A DNA stretch of 64,000 nucleotides from Nocardioides iriomotensis (GTDB taxonomy: Bacteria; Actinomycetota; Actinomycetes; Propionibacteriales; Nocardioidaceae): assembly GCF_004168035.1 (NCBI RefSeq), contig NZ_SDPU01000020.1, positions 248,001-312,000 on the forward strand, written 5' to 3'. Every line of letters begins with the position of its first letter. The first letter of the stretch is position 1. Below the pieces are notes generated by a model. The model worked only from the letters and a program-made list of their open reading frames with translations. It did no database searches and was not told the origin of the DNA. Of this stretch, positions 1 through 30,952 are shown piece after piece. A program made the position numbers and the translations under genes.

Positions 1-893
<893 letters not shown>

Positions 894-16091: not shown

Positions 16092-17039
16092 TCAGGACGC
16101 CTTCTTCGCCGCCTTCTTCGCGGTGGTCTTCTTCGCCGTCTTGCTCGCCGTCTTCGTGGCGGTCTTCTTGGCCGGAGCCTTCTTCTCGGCCTTCTTCTCG
16201 GTCTGCTTCGCCGTCTTCTTGGCCGGCGCCTTCGTCGTCTCCGAGGTGCTCTCGCCGCGCGCGGTCTTGGCCGCGTCGACGGACTTCTGCAGCGCCGCGA
16301 GCAGGTCGACCACCTCGCCTCCGGTGGCCTCCTTCCTCTCGACGTGGGTGACCTCGCCGCCCTCGAGCTTGGAGCGCACCAGCGCCTCGAGCGCCTCCTG
16401 GTAGTCGTCCTCGAACTCGTCGGGGTCGTAGTCGCCGGCGAGGGTCTCGACGAGCATCCGCGCCATCTGCAGCTCCTGCGGCTTCACGTCGATGTCGGCC
16501 GCGTCGAGCCCGGAGAACTCGGGCTTGCGGACCTCGTCGGGCCACATCATCGTCTGCATCACGATCACGTCGTCGCGCACGCGCAGCACCGCGGTGGTCA
16601 TCCGGCTGCGCAGCGACACGGTCACCACCGCGACCCGGTCGGCCTCGGTCAGTGCCTCGCGCAGCAGGGCGTAGGGCTTGGCCGCGGCGGCGTCGGGCTC
16701 GAGGTAGTAGCTCTTCTCCAGCCACATCGGGTCGATCTGCTCGCGCGGCACGAACTTCTCGACCGAGATCTCGCGGCTGCTGCTCGCCGGCAGGTCGGCG
16801 AAGTCGTCGTCGGTGAGCACGACCATCTCGCCGTCGTCGGTCTCGTAGCCCTTGGCGATGTCGGCGTACTCGACCTCCTCGCCGTCGACGCTGCACACGC
16901 GCTGGTAGCGGATCCGGCCGCCGTCCTTCGCGTGCACCTGCCGGAACGAGATGTCGTGGCTCTCGGTGGCGGCGTACAGCTTGACGGGCACGCTGACCAG
17001 CCCGAACGACACCGCGCCCTTCCAGATCGCCCTCGGCAT
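16092..17039 (-). CDS. ku: Ku protein (non-homologous end joining)
   Basis: A 315-aa bacterial Ku homodimer subunit that binds DNA ends and recruits LigD. The core begins MPRAIWKGAVSFGLVSVPVKLYAAT and includes DISFRQVHAKDGGRIRYQRVC, MWLEKSYYLEPD and ELQMARMLVETLAGDYDPDEFEDDYQEAL, all standard for the family. After about residue 250 comes a long low-complexity tail of Lys/Ala/Thr (TKAPAKKTAKQ-type repeats), resembling histone H1 tails and known in actinobacterial Ku to strengthen DNA binding. It is preceded on the same strand by the NYN gene and lies near two LigD-type genes. Confidence 0.95.
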   Translation of the reverse strand: MPRAIWKGAVSFGLVSVPVKLYAATESHDISFRQVHAKDGGRIRYQRVCSVDGEEVEYADIAKGYETDDGEMVVLTDDDFADLPASSSREISVEKFVPREQIDPMWLEKSYYLEPDAAAAKPYALLREALTEADRVAVVTVSLRSRMTTAVLRVRDDVIVMQTMMWPDEVRKPEFSGLDAADIDVKPQELQMARMLVETLAGDYDPDEFEDDYQEALEALVRSKLEGGEVTHVERKEATGGEVVDLLAALQKSVDAAKTARGESTSETTKAPAKKTAKQTEKKAEKKAPAKKTATKTASKTAKKTTAKKAAKKAS

Positions 17040-17160
17040 GCTCGTCTCCCTCGTCTCGTGGTGGTCCCGACCGGCCCAAACCTCCGGTCACGTACGTAGA
17101 CCGTCAGTGATCACCGTACTCATCGGCAAGGGAGGCGTCATGGGTGCGAACGCACCTGTC

Positions 17161-18393
17161 CTAGGGGCGACCCAGCCAGTCAGCGACCGCCACTTCCTCC
17201 TCATCGGAGAGCTCGATGCCGGCGGCGCGCGCACGCGACAGCGCATTCTTGACGAAGGCCCCGGCGATCTCGTCCGCAGTCGGAGCTGGCGACCGGTGCA
17301 GCGGCGACCCGCCGTAAGCCGCTCCGTTCATGACGAAACCGATCGAGCCACGGCTGACGGGAGCCCCGGCCTCCGTAAGTTGATCCCTGGACCACTTCGT
17401 TGCCTCGGTTGCGGAGAACGGATGCGTGGCAGCGAACTCCGCGAGGACGCCGTAGACGCGCCGCCAGTCTTGAGAATCGAGCCGTGGGAGGTTCTGCAGG
17501 GCCGCCAGTCTGGCGATCGCAGGGGGCTCGCCCGGAAAGCGTGCGACCGACTCGCCGAGCGCGGGGGGTTCGTGTCGGCGGGCGTCCCAGAGGAGGTGTT
17601 GATCGATCGTCAGGCCCGGTAGATCGAGACCGCGCAGGGCCGCGGCGAAGCTCCCGTGGCCGAACCAGCCAGACGTGGACGTACCGAGCTCCTGGTTCAG
17701 CTCGTGCGCCAGTGTCGCCAGGTTGATCGGCTGTGCCGCGGAGGCGTACTTCTCACGAACCAACCGTCCGAAGGAGTCGAAGGTCTGCTCGTTCGTCTCG
17801 GTCCCCGCTGTTGAGGCGATGACGGCTGGATCCGAGTCGTCCTCCTCCTGCAGGAGCTCGAGGGTGCGCTGCCCGTCGATGAGCTTGTCGGCAACGGCCG
17901 TGAAGGCAGCTGCAGCGTCGAACGGCGAGAGGATGGTCGTGCGCCGGTCGGCGGCGCGGATCCTCACGAGTAGCGGAGTGAGGTCGCTGTCGCCGGACGC
18001 GAGTACGAACTCGTCGTACCGCGTCGGGGCGGACAGGGCTTCGAAGGCGTCGAGAACCAGTCGGATGTCGGCCGCGTTCTTGGTTCCCTGTGTCAAGGAG
18101 GGGCAGTCGACCACGTCGAAGCCGGCGCGCGTGAAGTAGGGCCGAAAGCCCGAGAAGTAGATGCGGTCAGCGCGCGACGATGAGCCCGGTGGCGCGATCC
18201 ATCCGTTCGGGTTCATGTAGCAGCGACGCACGAGCCAGGCTCGTTGCCCGTCGAGCGTGGACGAGGTCGCCAGCCGCTCGAGAAGCGCGCCCGGGTCCTG
18301 GGCGAATGACTTCGCCGCCGCGGGGTCCAACCGGTGCAGGCCGCTGAACACGTTGTCGAAGTCGAGATAGAGCGCGGTGCGGACGCGGGTCAT
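17161..18393 (-). CDS. NYN-domain (PIN-like) protein with possible OST-HTH-like segment
   Basis: A 410-aa protein whose first ~170 residues form a NYN/PIN-like nuclease domain: ALYLDFDNV, GTKNAADIRLVLDAFEAL and FVLASGDSDLTPLLVRIR supply the acidic metal-binding residues. A central region (TFDSFGRLVREKYASAAQPINLATLAHELNQ and following) has the helix pattern of a LOTUS/OST-HTH RNA-binding domain. A helical C-terminal region follows and is not recognised. By eye the base composition is less GC-rich than its neighbours. It is codirectional with ku (121 bp apart) and divergent from the ligase gene. The function is inferred as an RNase or structure-specific nuclease; a role in end joining is speculation from position. 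Confidence 0.75.
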   Translation of the reverse strand: MTRVRTALYLDFDNVFSGLHRLDPAAAKSFAQDPGALLERLATSSTLDGQRAWLVRRCYMNPNGWIAPPGSSSRADRIYFSGFRPYFTRAGFDVVDCPSLTQGTKNAADIRLVLDAFEALSAPTRYDEFVLASGDSDLTPLLVRIRAADRRTTILSPFDAAAAFTAVADKLIDGQRTLELLQEEDDSDPAVIASTAGTETNEQTFDSFGRLVREKYASAAQPINLATLAHELNQELGTSTSGWFGHGSFAAALRGLDLPGLTIDQHLLWDARRHEPPALGESVARFPGEPPAIARLAALQNLPRLDSQDWRRVYGVLAEFAATHPFSATEATKWSRDQLTEAGAPVSRGSIGFVMNGAAYGGSPLHRSPAPTADEIAGAFVKNALSRARAAGIELSDEEEVAVADWLGRP

Positions 18394-18458
18394 GGCTCGA
18401 ACCTAGGTGGATCGGCCACGGTCGCATGGGATTGACGCCGTTGCGTCAGGATGGACCC

Positions 18459-19391
18459 ATGCGTCCGATGCTGGCTACCCGTGGCAGCCGCGTACCCGCC
18501 GACGACGCCTGGATGCACGAGGTGAAGTGGGACGGCATGCGGGTCGTCGTCGAGGCGGGCCGCGGGAAGGTGCGGCTCTGGTCGCGCAACGAGAACGACG
18601 TCACCGTCACGTTCCCCGAGCTGCACGCGCTCGCGGACCTCGACCACGAGGTGCTGCTCGACGGCGAGGTCGTCGCGTTCCTCGACGGTGTGCCGAAGTT
18701 CGGCGCGCTCGCCGACCGGATGCACGTCAGCCAGGCCGCGCGCGCCCGCGCGCTCGCGGAGAGGAACCCGGTCACGCTGCTCGCCTTCGACCTGCTGCGT
18801 CTCGACGGCGAGGACCTGATGGGGCTGCCGCTGACCGAGCGGCGGGCTCGGCTGGAGGGCCTCGGGCTCGCCGACGTGCACTGGCAGGTGCCTGCGGCGT
18901 ACGACGACGGCCTGATGCTGATGGCGGCCACCGAGCAGCAGGGCCTCGAGGGGATCGTGTCCAAGAAGCGCAGCTCGCGCTACCACCCCGGGCGGCGCAG
19001 CGCGGACTGGCTGAAGTTCCCGCACCGGGCCAGCGGGTCGTACGTCGTGGGCGGCTGGCGCCGCGAGACCGACAGCCGGACCCGGATCGGCGCCGTGCTC
19101 GTGGGCGAGCCGGCGGGCGGCGGCCTGCGCTACCGCGGTCGGGTCGGCAGCGGCATCGCCGGGAAGGCCGGGCAGCGGCTGCTCGACGTGCTGGCGCCGT
19201 ACGAGACCGACGTCTCGCCCTTCGTCGACGAGGTGCCGAAGGTCGACGCGCTCGGCACGACCTGGCTGGTGCCCGAGGTCGTCGTCGAGGTCGCCGCGCT
19301 CGGCTTCACGCCCGCCGGGCGGCTGCGTCAGCCGGCCTTCCTCGGGGTACGCACCGACCTCACGCCGGAGGAGGTGGTCCCGCATGCCTGA
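18459..19391 (+). CDS. ligD: ATP-dependent DNA ligase, LigD ligase-domain type
   Basis: A 310-aa stand-alone ATP-dependent DNA ligase. HEVKWDGMRV has the adenylated Lys (K23) of the KxDG motif. Further nucleotidyltransferase motifs are ARGSRV, DGEVVAF, FDLLRLDGEDL, EGIVSKKRSSRY and DWLKFPH. An OB-fold domain follows (YVVGGWRRETDSRTRIGAVLVG, YRGRVGSGI). It seals the double-strand break in NHEJ. ATG 18459 is preceded by CAGGAT at 6 nt; the upstream in-frame ATG 18426 is less likely. It overlaps the polymerase gene by 8 bp. Confidence 0.93.
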   Translation: MRPMLATRGSRVPADDAWMHEVKWDGMRVVVEAGRGKVRLWSRNENDVTVTFPELHALADLDHEVLLDGEVVAFLDGVPKFGALADRMHVSQAARARALAERNPVTLLAFDLLRLDGEDLMGLPLTERRARLEGLGLADVHWQVPAAYDDGLMLMAATEQQGLEGIVSKKRSSRYHPGRRSADWLKFPHRASGSYVVGGWRRETDSRTRIGAVLVGEPAGGGLRYRGRVGSGIAGKAGQRLLDVLAPYETDVSPFVDEVPKVDALGTTWLVPEVVVEVAALGFTPAGRLRQPAFLGVRTDLTPEEVVPHA

Positions 19392-20286
19392 CGAGGTGAT
19401 GGTCGAGGTCGACGGGCGGACGCTCAAGATCAGCAACCTGGCCAAGGTGCTCTACCCCGAGTCCGGCACGACCAAGGGCGAGGTGCTCAACTACTACGCG
19501 CAGGTGGCGCCGGTGCTGCTGCCGCACCTGGCCGACCGCGCGGTGACCCGGATCCGCTGGCCCGACGGCACGGCGAGCCACCAGTTCTTCGAGAAGAACC
19601 TGCCCAACGGCGCGCCCAAGTGGCTCCGCTCGGTGACGGTCTCCTCGACCGGGTCCCGGGGCGGCGGCGACCGGATCACCTACCCCCTCGTCGACGACAC
19701 CGCCGGGCTCACCTACCTCGCCAACCTCGCCTCGCTCGAGCTGCACGTCCACCAGTGGAAGTTCAACGGCAAGCAGCAGCCGCTGCACCCCGACCGGCTG
19801 GTCATCGACCTCGACCCCGGCGCGCCCGCCGGCCTGGGGGAGTGCTGCCAGGTGGCGCTCCTCGTGCGCGACAAGCTCGAGGGGCGCGGGCTGTCCTGCG
19901 CGCCGGTCACGTCGGGCAGCAAGGGCCTGCACCTGTACGCCGCCCTCCCGGGCGACAAGACCGCCGACGAGGTCCGCGACGCGGCGCAGGAGGTCGCGCG
20001 CGAGCTTACCGACGAGCGCGGTGACCTCGTGGTCTGGAAGATGACCAAGACCCTCCGCCCCGGCAAGGTGTTCCTCGACTGGTCGCAGAACACCGCCGCC
20101 AAGACCACCATCACGCCGTACTCCCTGCGCGGGCGCAATCGGCCGTACGTCGCCGCCCCGCGGACCTGGGACGAGATCGAGGCCGGCGCCGAGGACGCCG
20201 AGGAGATCGACCACCTGCTGCTCGACGAGGTGCTCGCCCGGATCGACGACGAGGGCGACGTCTTCGGCGACCTGCTGCACGGCTGA
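19384..20286 (+). CDS. ligD: LigD-type polymerase/primase domain protein (NHEJ polymerase)
   Basis: A 300-aa archaeo-eukaryotic primase-fold polymerase that fills gaps at Ku-bound ends. Family marks are LAKVLYPESGTTKGEVLNYYAQVAPVLLPHL, LEKNLP-like FEKNLPNGAP, the catalytic metal motif VIDLDPGAP (D142, D144), the His in TSGSKGLHLY, and FLDWSQNTAAKTTITPYSLRGR. It overlaps the ligase gene by 8 bp, so the two are expressed together. No 3'-phosphoesterase domain is fused or adjacent. In many actinomycetes these activities sit in one LigD polypeptide; here they are separate. Confidence 0.93.
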   Translation: MPDEVMVEVDGRTLKISNLAKVLYPESGTTKGEVLNYYAQVAPVLLPHLADRAVTRIRWPDGTASHQFFEKNLPNGAPKWLRSVTVSSTGSRGGGDRITYPLVDDTAGLTYLANLASLELHVHQWKFNGKQQPLHPDRLVIDLDPGAPAGLGECCQVALLVRDKLEGRGLSCAPVTSGSKGLHLYAALPGDKTADEVRDAAQEVARELTDERGDLVVWKMTKTLRPGKVFLDWSQNTAAKTTITPYSLRGRNRPYVAAPRTWDEIEAGAEDAEEIDHLLLDEVLARIDDEGDVFGDLLHG

Positions 20287-20400: not shown

Positions 20401-22941
20401 TCAGGAGGCCGGTCGGTCGTCGAACGAGATCTCGTCCGCGGTCACGTGCCCCCAGCCGCCGGTGGCCCGGTCGATGACCTCGAGGTGGGCGGTGCGCCCC
20501 TCGAGGTCGGCGACGTTCCACAACGCCCAGCGCAGCCGCTCCTCGTCCTGGCCGGTGGCGGTGCGGACGACCTTCCCGTCGACGACGAGGTTCACCGTGG
20601 TCTGCGCATCGGGGTCGCCGAGACCCAGGGTGGCGTCGTCGGTGAACACCACCCGGTCGACCATCAGGTGGCCCCAACCGCCGGTGTTGTCGTCGACGAC
20701 CTCGATCCGGGCCCGTTTCCCGACGAGCTGGTGCACGTCCCAGGTGACGCGTCGGAGCACGTCGTCGTTGCGGCCGGTCGCGGTGCGGCGTACCTCGCCG
20801 TCGACGAGGAGGTTCACCGACGTCGTGGCCGGCTCGCCCCACCGGTGGTTGCCGCCGGCGACGAGCAGGTCGACCTGGTCGCGGGTGATCGTGAACTCCG
20901 GCGACCACACCGAGCCGGTCGAGGAGTCGCCGCCGTTGACGAAGGTGTCGAGCACCTGGGCGCCGCTCTGGTTCGGCAGCGACGACGCCGTCGGTCCCTG
21001 CCCGGCGAAGCTGCCGGTGCCGGACCAGCCGGGGCCCCAGTCGCTGCCCTCGAAATCGTTGACGAGCTCGGCGGGCGCCGGGTTGTGGCCGCCGCCCATC
21101 AGGAAGTTCACGAACGGCTCGGTGACCGTGAAGTCCGGTGACTTCAGCAGGCCGGTCGCGGCGTCACCGCCGTGGTAGCTGTTCGCCAGCCGCTGGCCGG
21201 AGAAGCCGGTGACCGGCTGCTGGTCGGGAAGCGTGCCCGCCGCCGGCCCGGTGCCGAACGCCGCGCCGGTCGTCGACCAGCCGTCCCAGCCGGTGCCCTC
21301 GAACCCGGCGTACGGCGCCGGCCGGGACGTCGCCGCGGTGACGTCGTCGCACTCGCGGATCCGCATGTTCGTGAATTGGGCGGCGCCGCCGGAGGCGTAG
21401 AGCCGGATGCCGTCGTCGCCCCGCCGGAAGTGCACCAGGCTGGAGTGCACGACCTTGCCCTCGTCGGCGAAGACCTCGACGCTCGTCCTGTCCACGAAGA
21501 TGCGCAGGTGGACCGAGGTGGCATCGGGTCCGAAGGGCGACTCCGACTGCTGGTAGGGCCCGAACGACAGGTCCGGCGCCTCGCCCGGCCGGTCGGAGCC
21601 GGAGCGGTCCACGTAGAGCCGGTCGCCCTGCCACACGCCGATGTTGGTGCCGCGGCTGCGGTCCGGCGGCACGCCCACGGTCACGCCGACGTTCTCGAGC
21701 TGGGTCCACGACACGTCGGCCTCGAGCTCGTAGGCGGTGCCGCGGTAGTCGAGCTCGACCTGCCCGTTGACGATCCGGTCCGGCAGTGCGCGGGTCTCGG
21801 CGACGTGGTCGGCCAGCCCGGGGACCGGTTCGGAGAGCAGGTGGTAGTCGCCGGCACCCGGCCCCCGCTTGGCCAGCCGGATGCTGCGGACCAGCGACAT
21901 CTGGCCGCTGGTGCCGTCGGTGGCGTACGTCGGGGTGTGGCTGAGCGAGGCGTAGCGCCAGTTGTTCATCCAGCCGACGGCGTACCGCCGGTCGAGCGGC
22001 TGGGTGTGGTCGGGCCAGCTCACGGCGGCGTACCAGTCCCAGCCCCAGTCGAGCCACTTCGGGTCGGGGTGGTCCGGGACGAACGCGGTGCCGTTCCACT
22101 CGCCGGTCCAGTAGCCGTAGGTGTCGGGCAGGCCGCTGCGGTCGCCCTGCGTGCTGGCGGCCAGCACCCACCTGACGGTCCCGTCGTCGGCGCGGATGCG
22201 GAACAGGTCGGGGCACTCCATGCCGCCGATGTCGGGGGTGCGGTACTCGAAGTCCGAGCGGAAGGTCCAGTGCTTGAGGTCGGGGGACGTGTAGAAGCTC
22301 ATGAACTGGTTGCGGCCGATGGCCGCGACCCACTCGTCGCGGGCCGGGTCCCACTCGATCTTGGGGTCGCGGAACCAGTCCTCGTTGCCGGGGTCCGGGT
22401 TGTCGATCACCGGGGCGCCGTACGGCGTGAAGGTGTGGCCGTCGTCGGTGGAGTACCAGAGGTACTGCTCCTGGTCGTAGCGGTCGCCACCGGTCGGCTG
22501 GGTGGCGAGCGCGACCACCGCGCCCGCACCGAAGCCGGCGGTGTTGCCGGTGTCGACGACCGCGGACCCGGTCCACACCGGGAAGTCCGGCCCCTTGGGG
22601 ATCGCGGTGCCCTGGTCGGTGAAGACGACGTTGTCGGTGGTCGTGGCGTGGTGCCAGTCGCCCTGGCCGGTGTCGGGCGCGTCGCTGAAGAGGTAGTAGA
22701 GGTGGTACCTCCCGCCGGCCCAGACCGGGCGCTGCGGGTCGCTGAGCCAGCCCGGCGGACCGGTCAGGTGGTAGCGGGCGCGCAGCGAGTCCTCGGGCGG
22801 CGCGGTCGCGTCGGCCGGGGTCGTCGTCAGCGTGGCGAGCGCGCTGGTGAGCAGGGTGGTGATGGTCGCGAGGGCGGCCGACGCGCACCGAGCGCGTCGT
22901 CGCCGGGGCGATCCGGAGTGTGTCGCGGGCCTGGTCGGCAT
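20401..22941 (-). CDS. secreted GH32 beta-fructosidase with nested C-terminal duplicated module
   Basis: An 846-aa exported fructan hydrolase (levanase/inulinase class). The signal peptide has RRRRAR, then a hydrophobic ALATITTLLTSALATL segment and an Ala-x-Ala-type cleavage site near residue 46. The GH32 propeller has GWLSDPQRPVW (nucleophile Asp; a variant of WMNDPNG), RDPK (transition-state Asp) and ECPDLF (acid/base Glu). A GH32C beta-sandwich follows (SVEVFADEGK). The last ~300 residues are two copies of one module arranged as half A (about 543-620), half A' (626-700), half B' (703-768), half B (778-844), i.e. one copy inserted inside the other. A palindromic operator lies upstream, and the LacI gene before it is codirectional. 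Confidence 0.9.
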   Translation of the reverse strand: MPTRPATHSGSPRRRRARCASAALATITTLLTSALATLTTTPADATAPPEDSLRARYHLTGPPGWLSDPQRPVWAGGRYHLYYLFSDAPDTGQGDWHHATTTDNVVFTDQGTAIPKGPDFPVWTGSAVVDTGNTAGFGAGAVVALATQPTGGDRYDQEQYLWYSTDDGHTFTPYGAPVIDNPDPGNEDWFRDPKIEWDPARDEWVAAIGRNQFMSFYTSPDLKHWTFRSDFEYRTPDIGGMECPDLFRIRADDGTVRWVLAASTQGDRSGLPDTYGYWTGEWNGTAFVPDHPDPKWLDWGWDWYAAVSWPDHTQPLDRRYAVGWMNNWRYASLSHTPTYATDGTSGQMSLVRSIRLAKRGPGAGDYHLLSEPVPGLADHVAETRALPDRIVNGQVELDYRGTAYELEADVSWTQLENVGVTVGVPPDRSRGTNIGVWQGDRLYVDRSGSDRPGEAPDLSFGPYQQSESPFGPDATSVHLRIFVDRTSVEVFADEGKVVHSSLVHFRRGDDGIRLYASGGAAQFTNMRIRECDDVTAATSRPAPYAGFEGTGWDGWSTTGAAFGTGPAAGTLPDQQPVTGFSGQRLANSYHGGDAATGLLKSPDFTVTEPFVNFLMGGGHNPAPAELVNDFEGSDWGPGWSGTGSFAGQGPTASSLPNQSGAQVLDTFVNGGDSSTGSVWSPEFTITRDQVDLLVAGGNHRWGEPATTSVNLLVDGEVRRTATGRNDDVLRRVTWDVHQLVGKRARIEVVDDNTGGWGHLMVDRVVFTDDATLGLGDPDAQTTVNLVVDGKVVRTATGQDEERLRWALWNVADLEGRTAHLEVIDRATGGWGHVTADEISFDDRPAS

Positions 22942-23058: not shown

Positions 23059-24060
23059 TCAGACGGAGGCGCGCTCGACCAGCCGGCCGGTCAGGGTGCG
23101 ATCCAGGACCCGCTCCCCGGCCGCCGTCGCGGCCAGCATCTCGACCGCCGCGACCCCCATCTCCGCGAAGGGCAGGGCGACGGTGGTGAGCGCCGGACGC
23201 AGGTAGGCGGCGACGATCTCCTGGTTGTCGAAGCCGACGACCGCGACGTCCTCGGGAATGCGCAGCCCGCGCTCCTTGGCCGCGTCGTAGGCGCCCATCG
23301 CCATCCGGTCCGTGGCGCAGAACAGCCCGGTCGGCGGGTCCGCGAGGTCGAGGAGCCGGGCCGCGAGGTCGTAGCCGGTCGTCGCCGTCGCGTCGCCCTG
23401 CCGGACCAGGGCGGGCTCGAGCTCCAGCCCGGCCTCGGTGAGGGCCCGCTCGTAGCCGGACCGGCGACCGGTGCTGGCCGGCAAGCCGGCGGCGAGGTTC
23501 ACCAGGCCGATCCGGCGGTGGCCGGCGGCGAGGAGCCGCCGGGTGGCGGCGTACCCGCCCTCGACCTCGTCGGGAAGCACGCTGACGGCGCCGGGTCGGT
23601 CACTGGTGCAGTGCACGAGCACGGTGGGGACCGCCTCGACGGCGGCGGGCAGCGTCGCGACCCGGTGCATCTGGGTCGCGTAGACCAGACCCTCGACACG
23701 GCGATCGAGGAGCATCTCGACACCGGTGGCCTCGATCTCCGGGTCGCCCTCCGAGCTGACGATCAGCAGCAGCTTGTGCCTCCGCCACGCCGCCGCCTGG
23801 GCGCCGTGGATGATGCCGCCGCCGAACGGGCTGGCCGGGATGTCGGTGACGAACCCGATGAGGTCGGTGCGCTGCGCGGCGAGGGACTGGGCGCCCGCGT
23901 GCGGCCGGTAGCCGAGCTCGCGCGCCGCGGCGACCACCCGCGCCCGGGTCGCCTCGCTGATCCGGACGTCGGTGCGGCCGTTGAGCGCGAAGGAGACCGT
24001 CGCCCGGCTGAGCCCCAGGTGGCGGGCGAGGTCGTCCATCGACAGGCCGCTCTTCCGCAC
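23059..24060 (-). CDS. LacI family transcriptional regulator (fructan island, first)
   Basis: A 333-aa LacI/GalR regulator. The HTH is MDDLARHLGLSRATVSFALNGRTDVRIS, followed by the hinge RVVAAARELGYRPHAGAQSLAAQRTDLIGFV. The periplasmic-binding-protein-like sensor domain has GLFCATDRMAMGAYDAAKERGLRIPEDVAVVGFDNQ and ends LTTVALPFAEMGVAAVEML. GTG 24060 is preferred; the longer in-frame start at 24117 would read across the divergent promoter at 24108-24136. It lies between and divergent from the cytoplasmic GH32/transporter operon and upstream of the secreted GH32, so it probably senses a fructo-oligosaccharide or fructose derivative. Confidence 0.9.
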   Translation of the reverse strand: MRKSGLSMDDLARHLGLSRATVSFALNGRTDVRISEATRARVVAAARELGYRPHAGAQSLAAQRTDLIGFVTDIPASPFGGGIIHGAQAAAWRRHKLLLIVSSEGDPEIEATGVEMLLDRRVEGLVYATQMHRVATLPAAVEAVPTVLVHCTSDRPGAVSVLPDEVEGGYAATRRLLAAGHRRIGLVNLAAGLPASTGRRSGYERALTEAGLELEPALVRQGDATATTGYDLAARLLDLADPPTGLFCATDRMAMGAYDAAKERGLRIPEDVAVVGFDNQEIVAAYLRPALTTVALPFAEMGVAAVEMLAATAAGERVLDRTLTGRLVERASV

Positions 24061-24107
24061 GCGCGCATCCTCGCACGCACCGATCGGGACGAGTTCGCCC
24101 GGTGTGC

Positions 24108-24165
24108 TTGACGTCACAGCGGATGACCTCTACGGTCTGCTAAAGCGCATAACTAAAACGCTTAA
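24108..24165 (+). promoter_or_regulatory. sigma70-type promoter with AT-rich operator region for the GH32/ABC operon
   Basis: TTGACG (24108-24113), a 17-bp spacer and TACGGT (24131-24136) match a housekeeping promoter well. Immediately downstream, 24141-24165 has an unusually AT-rich stretch with two imperfect LacI-like half-symmetric sites (TAAAGCGCATAA and TAAAACGCTTAA). This is followed by GGAGG at 24173-24177 and the GTG start at 24182. A repressor bound there would block transcription start. Which LacI protein binds is not known. Confidence 0.6.
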
Positions 24166-24181
24166 ACGCACCGGAGGAACC

Positions 24182-25642
24182 GTGCCGCACCCGCAGAAGG
24201 AAGACCACCGCGTCTTCTACACGCCGTCCGACGGCTTCGTCGGCGACGTGATCCCGTTCCGCCACGGCGGCGAGTTCTGGCTCTTCTACCTGCTCGACCG
24301 GCACCCCGGCGAAGGCACGCCCTGGCAGCTGCTGCGGACCCGCGACTTCGTGACGTACGACGAGGCCGGCACCGGGCTGGCCAACGGCGACGCCGCGGCC
24401 GACGACTTCAACGCCTACACCGGCAGCGTGGTCGAGTCCGACGGCGTGCACCACGTCTTCTACACGGGTCAGAACCCCAAGATCGTGGACGAGGCCACCG
24501 GCGTCCCGCTCCAGGTCGTCATGCACGCGGTGAGCCACGACGGCATGGCCACCTGGGTGAAGCAGCCGCAGGACACCTTCGCCGCCCCTGGCGACCGCTA
24601 CGACCGCGCCGACTGGCGCGACCCGTTCGTGTTCCGGCCGGACCCGGAGGGCCCCTGGCGGATGCTGCTCGCCGCGCGGCATCTGACCGGCCCCGACCGT
24701 CGCCGCGGCGTCGTCGCCCAGTGCGCCTCGTGGGACCTCGCCAACTGGGAGGTCGTCGAGCCGTTCTGGGACCCGGCGCTCTACGTCACCCAGGAGTGCC
24801 CGGAGGTGTTCCGGATGGGGGACTGGTGGTACCTGGTGTACTCCGAGTTCTCCGAGCGGTTCACCACCCGCTACCGGATGAGCCGCGACCCGCTCGGGCC
24901 CTGGCTGCTGCCGGCCGCCGACGACTCGCTGGACGGCCGCGCGTTCTACGCCGCCAAGAGCGCGGCGGACGAGGACGGCCGCCGCTTCGCGATCGGCTGG
25001 ATCCCCACCAAGGCCGGCGAGACCGACGACGGCGCGTGGGAGTGGGCCGGCGCGATGACCGTGCACGAGCTGGTGCAGCGCCCCGACGGCGCCCTCGACG
25101 TCCGGCTCCCCGACACCGTCCGGGCGTCGTTCACCGAGGAGGACCGCGTCACGTTCGCTCCGGTGCTGGGCGACTGGGACCGGCTCGGGGTCGACGTTCC
25201 CGACGGGCACGCCTGTGCCGTGGCGGGTCCGCTGCCCGACACGTTCCTGCTCACCGTCGACGTCGAGGTCGGCGCCGGCACCTCGGCGGTCGGTGTCGTG
25301 CTGCGGTCGGGACAGGACGGCGACGAGGGGTACGCCGTCCGCCTGGAGCCGCGCGCCGGCCGGCTCACCTTCGACCGGTGGCCGCGGCTGCGCACCGGCG
25401 ACGCCCAGTGGCAGATCAGCGGCGACGTGCCGCAGGTGCTCGAGCTCGAGCGGGCGGTCGACCTGGCGCCCGGGCCGCACCGGCTGGAGGTGCTCGTGGA
25501 CGGCACCGCGTTCACGGCGTACCTCGACGACCGGGTCGCGATGAGCGGCCGCCTGTACGACAAGCGCGACGGCGGGCTCGGGCTGTTCGTCACCGAGGGT
25601 CACGCGACCTTCACGGACGTGCGCCTCCGGCGTCGTCCCTGA
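24182..25642 (+). CDS. GH32-like fructosidase, intracellular, variant nucleophile motif
   Basis: A 486-aa GH32 protein without a signal peptide. The five-bladed propeller has DWRDPFVF (RDP motif) and TQECPEVFRMG (acid/base Glu). The usual WMNDPNG nucleophile motif is replaced by GFVGDVIPF, keeping only the Asp. A C-terminal beta-sandwich domain (about residues 320-486) includes HRLEVLVDGTAFTAYLDDRVAMSGRLYD. It would hydrolyse imported fructo-oligosaccharides or a related beta-linked fructoside. First gene of an operon with the sugar importer; GTG start with GGAGG 4-5 nt upstream. Confidence 0.83.
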   Translation: MPHPQKEDHRVFYTPSDGFVGDVIPFRHGGEFWLFYLLDRHPGEGTPWQLLRTRDFVTYDEAGTGLANGDAAADDFNAYTGSVVESDGVHHVFYTGQNPKIVDEATGVPLQVVMHAVSHDGMATWVKQPQDTFAAPGDRYDRADWRDPFVFRPDPEGPWRMLLAARHLTGPDRRRGVVAQCASWDLANWEVVEPFWDPALYVTQECPEVFRMGDWWYLVYSEFSERFTTRYRMSRDPLGPWLLPAADDSLDGRAFYAAKSAADEDGRRFAIGWIPTKAGETDDGAWEWAGAMTVHELVQRPDGALDVRLPDTVRASFTEEDRVTFAPVLGDWDRLGVDVPDGHACAVAGPLPDTFLLTVDVEVGAGTSAVGVVLRSGQDGDEGYAVRLEPRAGRLTFDRWPRLRTGDAQWQISGDVPQVLELERAVDLAPGPHRLEVLVDGTAFTAYLDDRVAMSGRLYDKRDGGLGLFVTEGHATFTDVRLRRRP

Positions 25643-25691
25643 CACTGTCCCCACGCCGGTCGATGGCGTGCTCTTCATGGAGGAACGAAGG

Positions 25692-27020
25692 ATGAAGTAC
25701 ACACGATGGGGCCTGGCACTCCTGCTGGCCCTGGCCCTCACGGCCTGCGGGGGCGCGAGCGGCACGGGCAACACCGACCCGACCAAGGTGAGCGGTGACA
25801 TCGAGCCGCGCGCGATCTCGTGGCTGCTGTCGCGACCCGCCGACGGCGCCGTCATCACGACCGTGCAGGACATCGCGGCCGACTACGGCAAGGAGCACCC
25901 GGGCTTCTCGCTGGAGCTGATCACGACGCCCGACCGGCCGTCGTACCTGCAGAAGCTGGAGACGCTGGCCACCGCCAAGAAGCTGCCGGAGTTCTTCGAC
26001 ACCGACGCCACGCCCTTCGCCGACAAGCTCCGCGCCCGCGGCGACATGGTCGACGTGGAGAAGCTGCTCGACGAGCTCGGCATGCTCGACGACTACCGGC
26101 CGCTGGCCCTGGACTACCAGCGTTTCGACGACGGCGGGCTGTTCCTGATGCCGTTCGAGTTCGAGCTCGAGGCCTTCTGGTTCAACACCAAGCTCTTCGA
26201 CAAGGCCGGCATCGACGTGCCTGAGACGCTCGACGACCTGGTCGACACCTGCGGCCCGCTCCGCGACGCCGGGGTCGTGCCGATCGCCCTCGACGGCCAG
26301 GACCAGTGGCCGCTCGAGCGGTACATGTCCTACTACCCGTTCCGCACCGCCGGCCCCGACTACGTCAAGGAGCTCAAGAAGGGCGAGGCGTCGATCACCG
26401 ACGAGCCCGGGCGCCAGGCCGCCGGGTGGATCCACGACCTCGGCCAGGCAGGCTGCTTCCCCGACGGTTTCTCGTCCACCGGCTACACCGACGCCCGGGA
26501 CCTGTTCACGACGGGCAAGGCCGCGATCTACCAGATCGGCACGTGGGAGCTGCCCACGTTCCTCGGGGACCTGCCGCCCGCGACCGCGGGGGCGATCGAC
26601 TACTTCACGCTGCCGACGACCGACGGTGCTGTCACCGACCCCAACGAGTTCACCGTGGTCTCCGGCATCGGCACCGCGATCAACTCGCGCACCTTCGACC
26701 CGCTGGTCAAGGACTTCGTGACCTACCTGCTGGAGGAGTACCCGAAGCGGTACGCCGCCCAGGGCCGGTTCAGCTCGACGACGAACGTCGAGACCGCGGC
26801 CCCCGAGAGCGGGTCGGAGCTGTTCGACAAGGTCGTGGCCCAGATGGACGACCTCGGCGACCAGACCGCGATGCCGTGGGACACCCAGCTCGACCCCACG
26901 TCCAACTCGCGCCTCCAGCAGGAGCTCACCCTCCTCGCGCAGGGTGAGACCACGCCGGACGAGTTCCTGGCGACCGTCGACGAGACGATCTCCGAGAACG
27001 CCCCGAAGTACTTCGAGTAG
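25692..27020 (+). CDS. sugar ABC transporter substrate-binding lipoprotein
   Basis: A 442-aa extracellular solute-binding protein (family 1). The signal peptide ends in a lipobox (LALTAC), so the mature protein is lipid-anchored. The two-lobe binding-protein pattern is visible: FWFNTKLFDKAGIDVPETLDDLVDTCGPLRDAGVVPIAL and FTTGKAAIYQIGTWELPTF are typical of carbohydrate binders. GGAGGAACGAAGG lies just before the ATG, which fixes the start over the in-frame ATG at 25668. It lies about 50 bp after the GH32 gene with no promoter seen between. The likely ligand is a fructo-oligosaccharide or sucrose, inferred from neighbours. Confidence 0.9.
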   Translation: MKYTRWGLALLLALALTACGGASGTGNTDPTKVSGDIEPRAISWLLSRPADGAVITTVQDIAADYGKEHPGFSLELITTPDRPSYLQKLETLATAKKLPEFFDTDATPFADKLRARGDMVDVEKLLDELGMLDDYRPLALDYQRFDDGGLFLMPFEFELEAFWFNTKLFDKAGIDVPETLDDLVDTCGPLRDAGVVPIALDGQDQWPLERYMSYYPFRTAGPDYVKELKKGEASITDEPGRQAAGWIHDLGQAGCFPDGFSSTGYTDARDLFTTGKAAIYQIGTWELPTFLGDLPPATAGAIDYFTLPTTDGAVTDPNEFTVVSGIGTAINSRTFDPLVKDFVTYLLEEYPKRYAAQGRFSSTTNVETAAPESGSELFDKVVAQMDDLGDQTAMPWDTQLDPTSNSRLQQELTLLAQGETTPDEFLATVDETISENAPKYFE

Positions 27021-27122: not shown

Positions 27123-28007
27123 ATGCTCACGAACCGCTCCCGGACCGCGGTGCTGGTGTTCCTGCTGCCGCCTCTCGGGCTCTACCTGGTCGCGGTCGTC
27201 GGCCCGATCCTGCACTCGCTGGTGCTCAGCTTCTTCGAGTGGGACGGCCTGTCCGCGATGACCTTCGTCGGTCTCGACAACTACCGCCAGATGCTCTTCG
27301 ACGACGACATCTTCTGGAAGGCGACCGGCCACGGCCTGGTCTACCTGGCCGTCAGCCTGTTCTTCCAGCTCGTCGTCGCGCTCCTGCTGGCCAACCTGCT
27401 CACCTACGTGCGGCGCGGGCGGGAGCTGGTCAAGACCGCGTACCTGCTGCCGGCGATCGTCAGCACCGTCGCGATCGCCCTGATGTTCCGCCGGATCTAC
27501 TCCCTGGAGCCGCTCGGCCTGGTCAACGCCGCGCTCGGCGCGGTCGGGCTCGACGGCCTGCAGCGGCCCTGGCTCTCCGACCTCGACACCGTGCTGGTCG
27601 CCGTGTCCGCCCCGGAGGGGTGGCGGTTCGCAGGCCTCTACATGCTGATCCTGTACGCCGCCCTCATCGCCGTGCCGAAGGAGCTCGAGGAGGCCGCGCG
27701 GCTCGACGGGGCCTCGGAGTGGCGGATCTTCACGCAGATCCGGTTCCCCTACATCCGGCCGGTCTTCCTGACCACCGCGATCATGGCGGCGACGTACAGC
27801 CTGCGTGGCTTCGACATCCCCTACCTGCTGACCAACGGCGGCCCGGGCCACGCCTCGGAGCTGCTGACGACGTACATGTACAAGACCGCCTTCACCAGCA
27901 CGAACTTCGGCTACGCCAGCACACTCTCGGTGTTCATCGTCCTGCAGTGCGTCGTCGCGGTGCTGCTGATCGGGCTGGTCCGTCGCTCCGGGAGGTACGC
28001 GTCATGA
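27123..28007 (+). CDS. sugar ABC transporter permease (MalF/UgpA-like)
   Basis: A 294-aa inner-membrane permease with six hydrophobic segments. The EAA loop that contacts the ATPase is EEAARLDGASEWRIFTQIRFP. The N-terminus (VFLLPPLGLYLVAVVGPILHSLVLSFFEWDG) and FVGLDNYRQML are typical of carbohydrate uptake permeases. The stop overlaps the second permease (ATGA). Confidence 0.92.
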   Translation: MLTNRSRTAVLVFLLPPLGLYLVAVVGPILHSLVLSFFEWDGLSAMTFVGLDNYRQMLFDDDIFWKATGHGLVYLAVSLFFQLVVALLLANLLTYVRRGRELVKTAYLLPAIVSTVAIALMFRRIYSLEPLGLVNAALGAVGLDGLQRPWLSDLDTVLVAVSAPEGWRFAGLYMLILYAALIAVPKELEEAARLDGASEWRIFTQIRFPYIRPVFLTTAIMAATYSLRGFDIPYLLTNGGPGHASELLTTYMYKTAFTSTNFGYASTLSVFIVLQCVVAVLLIGLVRRSGRYAS

Positions 28008-28909
28008 GCGCCACCACGCTGAGCCGGCGTGCCACTGAGGAGCACGCCGTCACCCGTCCGCCCGCCCCCGAGCGGGTGCGCCGGCTCCGGCTGGCGCGGC
28101 ACGGCGTCACCGCGCTGGTCGCGGCGATCGTGCTGGTGCAGGTCTACCCGCTCGTGTGGGTGCTGCTCACCAGCCTGCGTCCGGCCGGTGAGTTCGCGGC
28201 CGGCAACCCGTTCGCCTTCCCGAGCGAGCTGACGCTCGAGAACTACCGCCGCGCCTGGGAGCTCGCGCCGCTGCCGCGCTACGTCTTCAACAGCCTGGTC
28301 GTGACGGTCGTGTCCAACGCGCTGATCGTGGTGCTCGGGATGATGGCGGCGTACGCGCTGACCGTGCTCGAGTTCCGCGGCAGCAAGGTGGTGCACGGGC
28401 TGTTCCTGATCGGGATCATCGTGCCGGTGCACGTCGCGCTGGTGCCGCTGTTCCTCAACTACTCGCAGGTGAACCTGCTCGACACGTACCAGTCGATGAT
28501 CATCCCGCTGGCGGGCTTCTCGCTGCCGATGTCGGTGTACCTGTTCTCGTCGTTCTTCCAGTACATCCCGCGCGAGACCTACGAGGCGGCCGCGCTCGAC
28601 GGTGCCGGTCCGTATCGGATCTTCGCCCAGATCACCGCGCCGCTGTCGGCGAACACCGTGGTGACAGTGGTGTTCGTGAACAGCATCTTCATCTGGAACG
28701 ACTTCGTCTTCGCCAACACGTTCGTGCTCAGCGAGGACCTCAAGACGATCCCGCTCGGGCTGCAGAACTACATGGGCGCGATGGGGTCGATGGACTGGAC
28801 GGCGACGTTCGCGGCAGTCTGTGTCACCGTCACGCCGCTCCTGCTGGTCTTCCTCGTCCTCAACAAGGCGATCATCTACGGGCTGGAGTCCGGTGCGACC
28901 AAGGGCTGA
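28004..28909 (+). CDS. sugar ABC transporter permease (MalG/UgpE-like)
   Basis: A 301-aa partner permease with a cytoplasmic N-terminal extension of about 30 residues and six membrane helices. The EAA loop is YEAAALDGAGPYRIFAQITAP. WVLLTSLRPAGEF after helix 1 and NDFVFANTF near the C-terminus are family-typical. The ATG lies in the upstream stop; GGGAGG is at 27990-27995. No ATP-binding subunit gene follows; a shared MsmK/UgpC-type ATPase encoded elsewhere is inferred. Confidence 0.92.
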   Translation: MSATTLSRRATEEHAVTRPPAPERVRRLRLARHGVTALVAAIVLVQVYPLVWVLLTSLRPAGEFAAGNPFAFPSELTLENYRRAWELAPLPRYVFNSLVVTVVSNALIVVLGMMAAYALTVLEFRGSKVVHGLFLIGIIVPVHVALVPLFLNYSQVNLLDTYQSMIIPLAGFSLPMSVYLFSSFFQYIPRETYEAAALDGAGPYRIFAQITAPLSANTVVTVVFVNSIFIWNDFVFANTFVLSEDLKTIPLGLQNYMGAMGSMDWTATFAAVCVTVTPLLLVFLVLNKAIIYGLESGATKG

Positions 28910-28925
28910 GGGGGAGGATGAGGGC

Positions 28926-29951
28926 ATGACCGAGGCGAGCACGCCCGCCCGCCGGGCGACGATCGCCGATGTGGCGCGCCTGGCGGAGGTGTCGTCGGCG
29001 ACGGTGTCGTTCGTCATCAACGACAAGCACACGATGCGGATCAGCGAGGCCACCCGTGAGCGCGTGTGGGCGGCGGTGCGCGAGCTGGGCTACCGGCCCA
29101 ACGCGCTGGCCAAGAGCCTGAGCTCGGGCAGCTCGCGGTTCATCGGCGTGGTCGCGGACGCGATCGCCACCACGCCGTTCGCCGGACAGCTGATCCAGGG
29201 CGCGCAGGACGAGGCCTGGCGGCACGGCTACGTGCTGCTGGTCGCCAACACCGACGAGGAGAAGGACGTCGAGGCGCAGGCCCTGCGGATGCTGCTGGAG
29301 CACCAGGTCGCGGGCATCCTCTACTCGACGTACTACCACCGCGAGGTGGAGGTCCCCGCCGACCTGCGCAACGCCCAGGTGGTGCTGGCCAACTGCTACG
29401 CCGAGGGGTCGAGCCTGCCGTGCGTCGTCCCCGACGAGGTCCAGGGCGGCAGGTCGGCGACCGACGTGCTGCTCGACGCCGGGCACACCCGGATCGCGTT
29501 CGTGAACTCCGTCGAGGACGCGCCCGCGACCCGCGGCCGCCTCGAGGGCTACCAGGCAGCGCTCGCCGCGCGTGACGTGCCGTTCGACGAAGGCCTCGTG
29601 CTCACGCTGGGCAGCCACCAGGAGAGCGGCTGGACCGCCGCCGAGAAGCTGCTCGCCATGACCGAGCCGCCGACCGCGGTGTTCTGCTACAACGACCGCG
29701 TCGCGATGGGCCTGTACGACGCCCTGCGCGAGCGCGGCCTGCGGGTGCCGGCCGACATGGCCGTGGTCGGCTTCGACAACCAGGAGATCATCGCCGGCCA
29801 CGTCCGCCCGCCGCTCACGACCGTGGCGCTGCCGCACTACGAGATCGGTGCGCGGGCGGTGCAGGTGCTGCTCGGGCTCGACACCGGCGAGCCCTCCGGG
29901 ACGCTGCGACACGTGATCGCCTGCCCGACCGTGACCCGGGAGTCCGTGTGA
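28926..29951 (+). CDS. LacI family transcriptional regulator (fructan island, second)
   Basis: A 341-aa LacI/GalR regulator. The HTH is ATIADVARLAEVSSATVSFVINDKHTMRIS, with a hinge ending ELGYRPNALAKSLSSGSSRFIGVV. The sensor domain includes AVFCYNDRVAMGLYDALRERGLRVPADMAVVGFDNQEI. It resembles the first LacI of this island in both HTH (TVSF-IN/LN) and sensor, suggesting paralogues with related effectors. The ATG follows GGGGGAGGATGAGG, and the stop overlaps the next GH32 (GTGA). It is the penultimate gene of the transporter operon. Confidence 0.92.
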   Translation: MTEASTPARRATIADVARLAEVSSATVSFVINDKHTMRISEATRERVWAAVRELGYRPNALAKSLSSGSSRFIGVVADAIATTPFAGQLIQGAQDEAWRHGYVLLVANTDEEKDVEAQALRMLLEHQVAGILYSTYYHREVEVPADLRNAQVVLANCYAEGSSLPCVVPDEVQGGRSATDVLLDAGHTRIAFVNSVEDAPATRGRLEGYQAALAARDVPFDEGLVLTLGSHQESGWTAAEKLLAMTEPPTAVFCYNDRVAMGLYDALRERGLRVPADMAVVGFDNQEIIAGHVRPPLTTVALPHYEIGARAVQVLLGLDTGEPSGTLRHVIACPTVTRESV

Positions 29952-30952
29952 GACCCGAGCTGCACTTCACCCCCACGAGCGGCTGGGTCAACGACCCCTA
30001 CGGCGTCACCTGGCGCGACGGCCGCTACCACCTGTTCTTCCAGCACGTCCCCGGCTCCCTCGTCTGGGACGTCGCGCAGCACTGGGGGCACGCGGTCAGC
30101 GACGACCTCGTGCACTGGACCGAGCAGCCGGTCGTGCTGGCGCCCGACGACGCCGACGGCGGCATCTGGTCCGGCACCGTGGTCGACGCCAACGTGGGCC
30201 GGATGTTCTACACCTCGGTCGCCGTCGACGCGCCGGACCTCGGCACGGTCCAGGAGGCGCGTCCCACCGACGACACCTGGACGGCGTGGAAGAAGGTCGA
30301 CGGCGCGGTCGTCCCGCTGCCGGACGACCTCGACCTGGTGCAGCTCCGCGACCCCTTCGTGCTCCACGACGGCACGTCCTGGCGGATGGTCGTCGGCGCG
30401 GGCCTGAGCGACGGCACCGCGGCCGCCCTGTCCTGGACCTCCGACGACCTCGAAGGCTGGACCTACGCCGGCGTGCTCACCTCGCGCCGCGACGCCGACC
30501 GCGACCCGGTGTGGACGGGGACGGCCTGGGAGTGCCCGCAGCTGCTGCGTGTCGACGACGCCTGGGTGCTGGTCGTGTCCGTGTGGTCCGAGGGGCACAC
30601 GCGGTACGTCGCGGCGGCCGTCGGTGACCTCGTCGGTGACCGGTTCGAGGCGCGCTCGTGGCAGCGGCTGACGCACGGCGCGCACTACGCCTCCTCGGCG
30701 TTCCGCGACGCCGACGGCCGCCCGTGCCTCATCCACTGGCTCCGCGGCGTCGCCGACCTCGAGGCCGGCTGGGCCGGCGCGCACTCGGTGCCGCACGTGC
30801 TCGGGCTCGCCGGCGACCGGGTCGTGCTGTCGCCGCACCCGGCCGTCGCCGACCGGACGGTGAAGGACGGCGACAGGACCGTCCTGGTGGACGGCCCGGT
30901 CGTCGAGGTGTTCGGCCCGGACGGCGTCGCGGGCTACGTGCTCACGCCGTAG
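29948..30952 (+). CDS. GH32 beta-fructosidase, intracellular (sucrase/sucrose-6-phosphate hydrolase type)
   Basis: A 334-aa GH32 enzyme without signal peptide. The three acidic motifs are intact: HFTPTSGWVNDPYG (nucleophile Asp), LRDPFVLHDG (RDP) and WECPQLLRVDD (acid/base Glu). The C-terminal beta-sandwich is very short ([19 protein letters not shown]), so the protein is shorter than typical invertases of 450-500 aa. GTG start inside the LacI stop. Its 3' end overlaps by 11 bp the converging eda gene. It likely cleaves imported sucrose or short fructans. Confidence 0.9.
   Translation: MRPELHFTPTSGWVNDPYGVTWRDGRYHLFFQHVPGSLVWDVAQHWGHAVSDDLVHWTEQPVVLAPDDADGGIWSGTVVDANVGRMFYTSVAVDAPDLGTVQEARPTDDTWTAWKKVDGAVVPLPDDLDLVQLRDPFVLHDGTSWRMVVGAGLSDGTAAALSWTSDDLEGWTYAGVLTSRRDADRDPVWTGTAWECPQLLRVDDAWVLVVSVWSEGHTRYVAAAVGDLVGDRFEARSWQRLTHGAHYASSAFRDADGRPCLIHWLRGVADLEAGWAGAHSVPHVLGLAGDRVVLSPHPAVADRTVKDGDRTVLVDGPVVEVFGPDGVAGYVLTP

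What the first reader, a model, noticed from the sequence alone, without database searches (positions are those of the whole stretch)
20401..21310. Nested rather than tandem domain duplication in the large GH32
The C-terminal module of about 150 residues can be split into half A (FEG...W...GG.HN) and half B (TTVNLVVDG...GGWGH). The order seen is A, A', B', B: a complete second copy (A'B') sits inside the first, at the GGGHN turn. Tandem duplication gives ABAB, so this needs domain insertion at an internal loop. It is an unusual way to double a carbohydrate-binding module.
Basis: seen in the sequence. Interest (0 to 1): 0.65.

Follow-up and report, generated by a model that had tools for sequence, protein, structure and literature searches.

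The report
Sugar-binding domain nested inside its twin
A secreted bacterial enzyme that attacks fructose polymers ends in two copies of one probable sugar-binding domain, one copy inserted inside the other like a Russian doll, and the arrangement is conserved in dozens of related enzymes, in most of which the whole doll is itself inserted into the catalytic domain.

Summary
The 846-aa GH32 protein (20401-22941, minus strand; 58% identical to Arthrobacter levan fructotransferase) ends in half-domains in the order A A' B' B. A matches A' and B' matches B far beyond chance. AlphaFold2 plus structural alignment gives two complete CBM-like beta-sandwiches: an outer one from residues 1-~80 and ~235-304 of the module, and an inner one from ~80-230; no crossed pairing appears. 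All 34 full-length nested homologues found keep this order, always split at the GGG-HP turn. Uninterrupted AB exists as single domains (C-terminal in Cellulomonas; inside the propeller in Catenovulum) and as tandem ABAB arrays. In single-AB enzymes of the window's own type, A groups with inner A' and B with inner B'. They branch inside the nested clade, so the outer shell was probably lost there. Most likely function, inferred: a rigid, doubly tethered pair of fructan-binding modules. No Pfam, NCBIfam or PDB sequence match; CBM38 membership could not be tested. New variant of a known kind.

The parts
20401..22941 (-). GH32 enzyme, 846 aa, levan fructotransferase / endo-levanase type, N-terminal signal-like region
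   Evidence: ORF; PF00251 3.5e-62 and PF08244 7.2e-21; PDB 4ffg levan fructotransferase 3.7e-164, 58% identity over 469 aligned residues
21868..22770 (-). GH32 five-bladed propeller, aa 58-358 (D68 of WLSDPQ, D192 of FRDPK, E242 of ECPD = GH32 catalytic motifs)
   Evidence: Pfam; alignment to 4ffg, in which the D54N mutant position equals D68
21355..21750 (-). GH32 C-terminal beta-sandwich, aa 398-529
   Evidence: Pfam
21076..21315 (-). outer half A (aa 543-622), ends at the GGGHNP turn
   Evidence: HMM match 547-621
20842..21063 (-). inner half A' (aa 627-700)
   Evidence: HMM match 629-699
20632..20826 (-). inner half B' (aa 706-770)
   Evidence: HMM match 707-768
20413..20604 (-). outer half B (aa 780-843)
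   Evidence: HMM match 781-842
22057..22074 (-). place in the propeller (about aa 290-295, FVPDHPDP/KWLD) where 29 relatives carry the whole nested module; empty here
23059..24117 (-). neighbour: LacI-family regulator
   Evidence: Pfam
24140..25642 (+). neighbour: second GH32 without the module (start codon not settled; ORF opens at 23972)
   Evidence: Pfam
25668..27020 (+). neighbour: ABC sugar-binding protein
   Evidence: Pfam
27123..28007 (+). neighbour: ABC permease
   Evidence: Pfam

Best explanation
The C-terminal module is two homologous beta-sandwich domains, one inserted in the other. The outer domain is made of A (aa 543-622) and B (780-843); the inner domain A'B' (627-770) sits in the hairpin turn that joins outer A's last strand (FVNFLMGGG) to outer B's first strand (TTVNLVVDG). 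A copy of the AB domain most likely entered another AB copy at that turn once, in an ancestor of actinobacterial and Sporolactobacillus GH32 enzymes. The nested pair then travelled as one unit, either appended after GH32 or inserted in a propeller loop. Functionally it most likely holds fructan (levan) chains next to the active site of a secreted levan fructotransferase or endo-levanase. Nesting gives two attachment points, so the two binding faces keep a fixed mutual orientation, unlike a flexible tandem. Shown: order, homology, conservation, position-specific descent. Predicted: the fold. Inferred: carbohydrate binding, rigidity, single origin, enzyme product.
For: Half-domain homology. 34 full-length nested proteins with constant order and constant split site. 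An AB profile matches the inner pair as one continuous domain and the outer halves as separate 1-77 and 77-143 pieces. The AF2 model gives two sandwiches with nested, not crossed, ranges, and the same template families (CBM16, CBM61) fit either one. Single-AB enzymes L006 and L024: A joins inner A' (AU p 0.007 against joining the outers) and B joins inner B' (97/90); the catalytic tree puts them inside the nested C-terminal group (98/90). Inner A' and B' co-vary after removing the outers (partial r 0.47, crossed control 0.10). Tandem ABAB and single AB elsewhere show that AB is an autonomous module. GH32 with levan fructotransferase as nearest solved relative, in a gene neighbourhood of LacI, ABC transporter and further GH32 genes. 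Both copies keep the conserved FEG, W, GD, S-P-F, D and GGWGH positions.
Against: The AF2 model rests on 6 sequences and is only moderately confident (pLDDT 75, pTM 0.53; the other four models 43-68). Outer A and outer B do not co-vary beyond background (0.17 against 0.13), and the AU test for B is borderline (0.06). Half-domain trees are short (68-83 columns); some Streptomyces and Actinomyces oris copies fall among the wrong class, so gene conversion or a second nesting is possible. No binding data exist for any member found.
Confidence: 0.8

Rival explanations
1. Same final fold, different origin: half A was duplicated in tandem and then half B was duplicated in tandem, giving AABB without any insertion event.
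For: It would produce exactly the same order and linkers; sequence order alone cannot exclude it.
Against: It needs an AAB or ABB intermediate with an unpaired half-domain, and none was found in the survey. The one AAB (L033) continues with B-GC in the next ORF, which looks like a broken frame. A/A' and B/B' divergence are in proportion to the same-position controls (45 against 56/48%, 49 against 59/54%), as one event predicts. It is not formally excluded.
Confidence: 0.15
2. Crossed or swapped pairing: A folds with B' and A' with B, or A with A' and B' with B, so nothing is nested in space.
For: The two A halves and the two B halves are alike enough to swap in principle; the AF2 confidence between the domains is moderate.
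Against: VIA-align rows give only 1..30x and ~80..230 ranges. A'-B' is joined by the same short linker (median 6 residues) as in single AB domains (2-8 in four of five). Single AB domains resemble A' plus B'.
Confidence: 0.05
3. The module is nested as described but is not a carbohydrate binder; it is a structural or oligomerisation appendage.
For: No binding data; the nearest folds also include MAM and reelin domains, which bind proteins.
Against: It sits on or in secreted fructan-acting GH32 enzymes in nearly every case. The best structural matches are CBMs (porphyran CBM 8xmz, CBM16, CBM61, CBM29). Tandem arrays occur in a marine polysaccharide-degradation region with SusC/D genes.
Confidence: 0.2

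Closest known systems
Levan fructotransferase of Arthrobacter ureafaciens (PDB 4fff-4ffi, GH32)
   Same: Catalytic part 58% identical over 469 residues, same GH32 motifs
   Different: The solved chain has no C-terminal module
Endo-levanase LevB1 of Bacillus licheniformis (PDB 9h8i)
   Same: Second-closest catalytic domain, 1.1e-124
   Different: No nested module in the solved chain
CBM38 of Paenibacillus macerans cycloinulooligosaccharide fructanotransferase (PMC10076258 describes it as two beta-sandwiches, residues 32-389, binding levan/inulin)
   Same: Fructan-binding, beta-sandwich, attached to GH32; Bacillota GH32 proteins found here carry tandem AB copies (L067-L074)
   Different: Its sequence and any CBM38 model were not available, so kinship is untested; the tandem Bacillota copies seen here are not nested
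CBM66 of Bacillus subtilis SacC
   Same: Beta-sandwich fructan binder on a GH32 enzyme (PMC10076258)
   Different: No sequence match of the AB profile to any PDB chain of that family; single domain
Porphyran-binding CBM (8xmz), CBM16 (2zey), CBM61 (2xom), CBM29 (1oh3)
   Same: Sandwich fold, Z 11-13, about 130 residues at about 3 A
   Different: About 10% identity, one uninterrupted domain each, other ligands
CBM58 inserted in the catalytic domain of SusG (from memory)
   Same: A CBM inserted into a glycoside hydrolase catalytic domain
   Different: Not nested in a homologous copy of itself

Membership tests
GH32 | GH32 propeller plus C-terminal sandwich with D / RDP / ECP motifs | tested here: met
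   PF00251 and PF08244 far above cut-offs; D68, D192, E242 aligned to 4ffg
Levan fructotransferase | closest sequence kinship to the characterised enzyme | tested here: met
   58% identity to 4ffg; next LevB1
Levan fructotransferase | forms difructose anhydride IV from levan | not testable with these tools
   needs an enzyme assay; endo-levanase remains possible
Carbohydrate-binding module (general) | non-catalytic, autonomously folding unit attached to a CAZyme | tested here: met
   single, tandem, nested, C-terminal and propeller-inserted copies on GH32
Carbohydrate-binding module (general) | beta-sandwich fold like known CBMs | tested here: met
   predicted model, Z 11-13 to CBM chains; a prediction, not a solved structure
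Carbohydrate-binding module (general) | demonstrated sugar binding | not testable with these tools
   no data
CBM38 | sequence kinship to the P. macerans CFTase module | not testable with these tools
   no CBM38 model in Pfam or NCBIfam as searched; the sequence was not at hand
CBM66 | sequence kinship to the SacC module | tested here: inconclusive
   AB profile against PDB sequences found no CBM66 chain; a fold relation is not excluded
Domain nested in its own homologue | complete inner copy between two halves of an outer copy, both folding as whole domains | tested here: met
   fold part predicted only

The most novel reading that the evidence does not exclude
Self-insertion of a domain at its own internal turn is a real, reusable evolutionary route: the nested pair became a unit that could be placed inside a third domain (three-level nesting) and could be peeled back to a single domain, giving a doubly tethered, rigid bivalent fructan binder that tandem duplication cannot make.
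Probability: 0.55. Interest if true: 0.65.

Novelty: new variant of a known kind. Interest (0 to 1): 0.52.

Why it matters
Domain repeats are normally tandem, and here a domain has been doubled by insertion into its own homologue. Intact single, tandem, nested and doubly nested relatives exist, as does a lineage that seems to have shed the outer shell, so how nested domains arise, fold and revert becomes testable. The nested module is also a candidate bivalent fructan-binding tool without a family model in Pfam or NCBIfam.

Tried and rejected
Pfam, NCBIfam and PDB sequence searches of the module: no match. The AB profile against PDB gave only short partial matches to an unrelated bean lectin-like inhibitor and a phage protein, judged chance. 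One viral-contig scan: no relative. A re-alignment with split GH32 fragments (A4) was worse than A3 and not used. The weak PF16346 hit on a Bacillota protein was below cut-off and not pursued. Crossed pairing and chance repeat rejected. Paper searches for nested or self-inserted CBMs in GH32 found none; the library is open-access only, so absence there is weak evidence.

Full report
WHAT WAS CHECKED. The open reading frame 20401-22941 on the minus strand encodes an 846-residue protein with Glyco_hydro_32N at 58-358 and Glyco_hydro_32C at 398-529. Its closest solved relative is the levan fructotransferase of Arthrobacter ureafaciens (4ffg, 3.7e-164; 58% identity over 469 residues), followed by endo-levanase LevB1 (1.1e-124). 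The remaining residues 541-846 match nothing in Pfam, NCBIfam or the PDB by sequence.

THE OBSERVATION. A and A' align with BLOSUM62 score 151 (500 shuffles: mean 32, maximum 55). B' and B align with 175 (mean 27, maximum 52). Every A-against-B comparison lies at the shuffle mean. So the order A A' B' B is real. DNA identity between copies is low enough that the duplication is old.

HOMOLOGUES. AB is therefore an autonomous module that occurs single, tandem and nested. The split always lies at the same turn: single domains read ...GGGDHP-LGVEPA-TSVNLLVDG..., nested ones ...GGGxHP-[A'B']-TTVNLLVDG.... The A'-B' linker (median 6 residues) equals that of most single domains.

FOLD. AlphaFold2 on residues 541-846 with five related sequences gave pLDDT 75 and pTM 0.53. 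Coordinates are not exposed, but structural alignment gives ranges. Of 50 PDB rows, 25 align a single sandwich to model residues 1..302-306. The best is a 137-residue porphyran CBM, 8xmz: 128 residues, 2.8 A, Z 12.8, so the aligned residues must come from both ends of the module with the middle skipped. Another 24 align a single sandwich to about 80..230. CBM16 and CBM61 chains appear in both classes. One reelin row covers both with rmsd 13. No row has the ranges that crossed pairing would give.

THREE LEVELS. In the Sporolactobacillus protein L005, Pfam and PDB alignments of GH32 break at residue about 294 and resume at about 617, with the nested module between. An AlphaFold2 model of L005 (pLDDT 66.5, pTM 0.55) aligns to exo-inulinase 8i12 over 459 of 489 residues, Z 36, spanning model 9..792. 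The enzyme fold is thus intact around the insert: GH32 [A [A' B' ] B ] GH32. The window enzyme has no insert at that site.

HISTORY. In half-domain trees outer copies mostly group with outer and inner with inner across proteins (same-position identity 56/59% against outer-inner 44/48%), so nesting is ancestral to most members. In the C-terminal single-AB enzymes the A half groups with inner A' (union with the outers rejected, AU p 0.007) and the B half with inner B' (97/90; union with the outers p 0.06). Both halves thus identify A'B' as one domain. The catalytic-domain tree places these single-AB enzymes inside the nested C-terminal group, next to L004 (98/90), so the simplest reading is loss of the outer shell (the root is not inferred). 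Inner A' and inner B' distances co-vary after controlling for the outers (partial r 0.47; crossed control 0.10). For the outer pair the test is uninformative (0.17 against 0.13). Exceptions: Streptomyces inner A' and both copies of Actinomyces oris L029 fall in unexpected places, so gene conversion or repeated nesting is not excluded.

FUNCTION. The gene stands beside a LacI regulator, a second GH32, an ABC binding protein and permease, another LacI and a third GH32: a fructan-use locus by inference. The module's best structural matches are carbohydrate-binding modules, and it is attached to or inserted in fructan-acting enzymes almost throughout. The best-supported mechanism, inferred, is that the nested pair presents two fructan-binding faces in a fixed orientation because each inner domain is held by two linkers. 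Whether this module is CBM38, the known inulin/levan-binding module of a Paenibacillus GH32 described as two beta-sandwiches (PMC10076258), could not be tested.

ALTERNATIVES. Two successive half-duplications would give the same order; no AAB or ABB intermediate was found, but this is not excluded. Crossed pairing is disfavoured, linker lengths and single-domain kinship. A structural rather than sugar-binding role is possible.

VERDICT. Observation confirmed; nesting supported by sequence, comparative and predicted-structure evidence; an experimental structure is lacking. New variant of a known kind.

Noticed in passing
L005, L008-L014, L017-L018, L023, L025, L029-L032, L075-L088: The whole nested module is inserted in the GH32 propeller between the YFVGDFDG-like and WLDxGxDFYA segments, giving three-level nesting.
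   Followed up: yes
L029 (Actinomyces oris WVU627 plasmid record) and Streptomyces loci such as L025, L081: Some inner copies group with outer copies, or the reverse, in half-domain trees; possible gene conversion or a second nesting event.
   Followed up: partly
L033 (Arthrobacter sp. StoSoilB13 plasmid): The nested GH32 gene appears broken: A A' B' in one ORF, B plus the GH32 C-part in the next.
   Followed up: no
L028, L105-L109 (Catenovulum adriaticum plasmid pCadTS8_1, 240-287 kb): A plasmid region with many GH32 genes beside SusC/SusD genes, carrying single and tandem AB modules (20 matches).
   Followed up: partly
window 16092-20286: Ku gene (minus strand) near separate ORFs for an ATP-dependent DNA ligase and a LigD primase-polymerase (plus strand, overlapping by a few bases): an end-joining set with LigD split in two.
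   Followed up: no
window 28821-30952: A second LacI regulator followed by a third GH32 (N-domain hit only, 334 aa), which extends the fructan locus.
   Followed up: no
L071, residues 499-565: Weak, sub-threshold hit of the single AB region to PF16346 (BT1760-like C-terminal domain), E 6e-4; a possible distant link.
   Followed up: no
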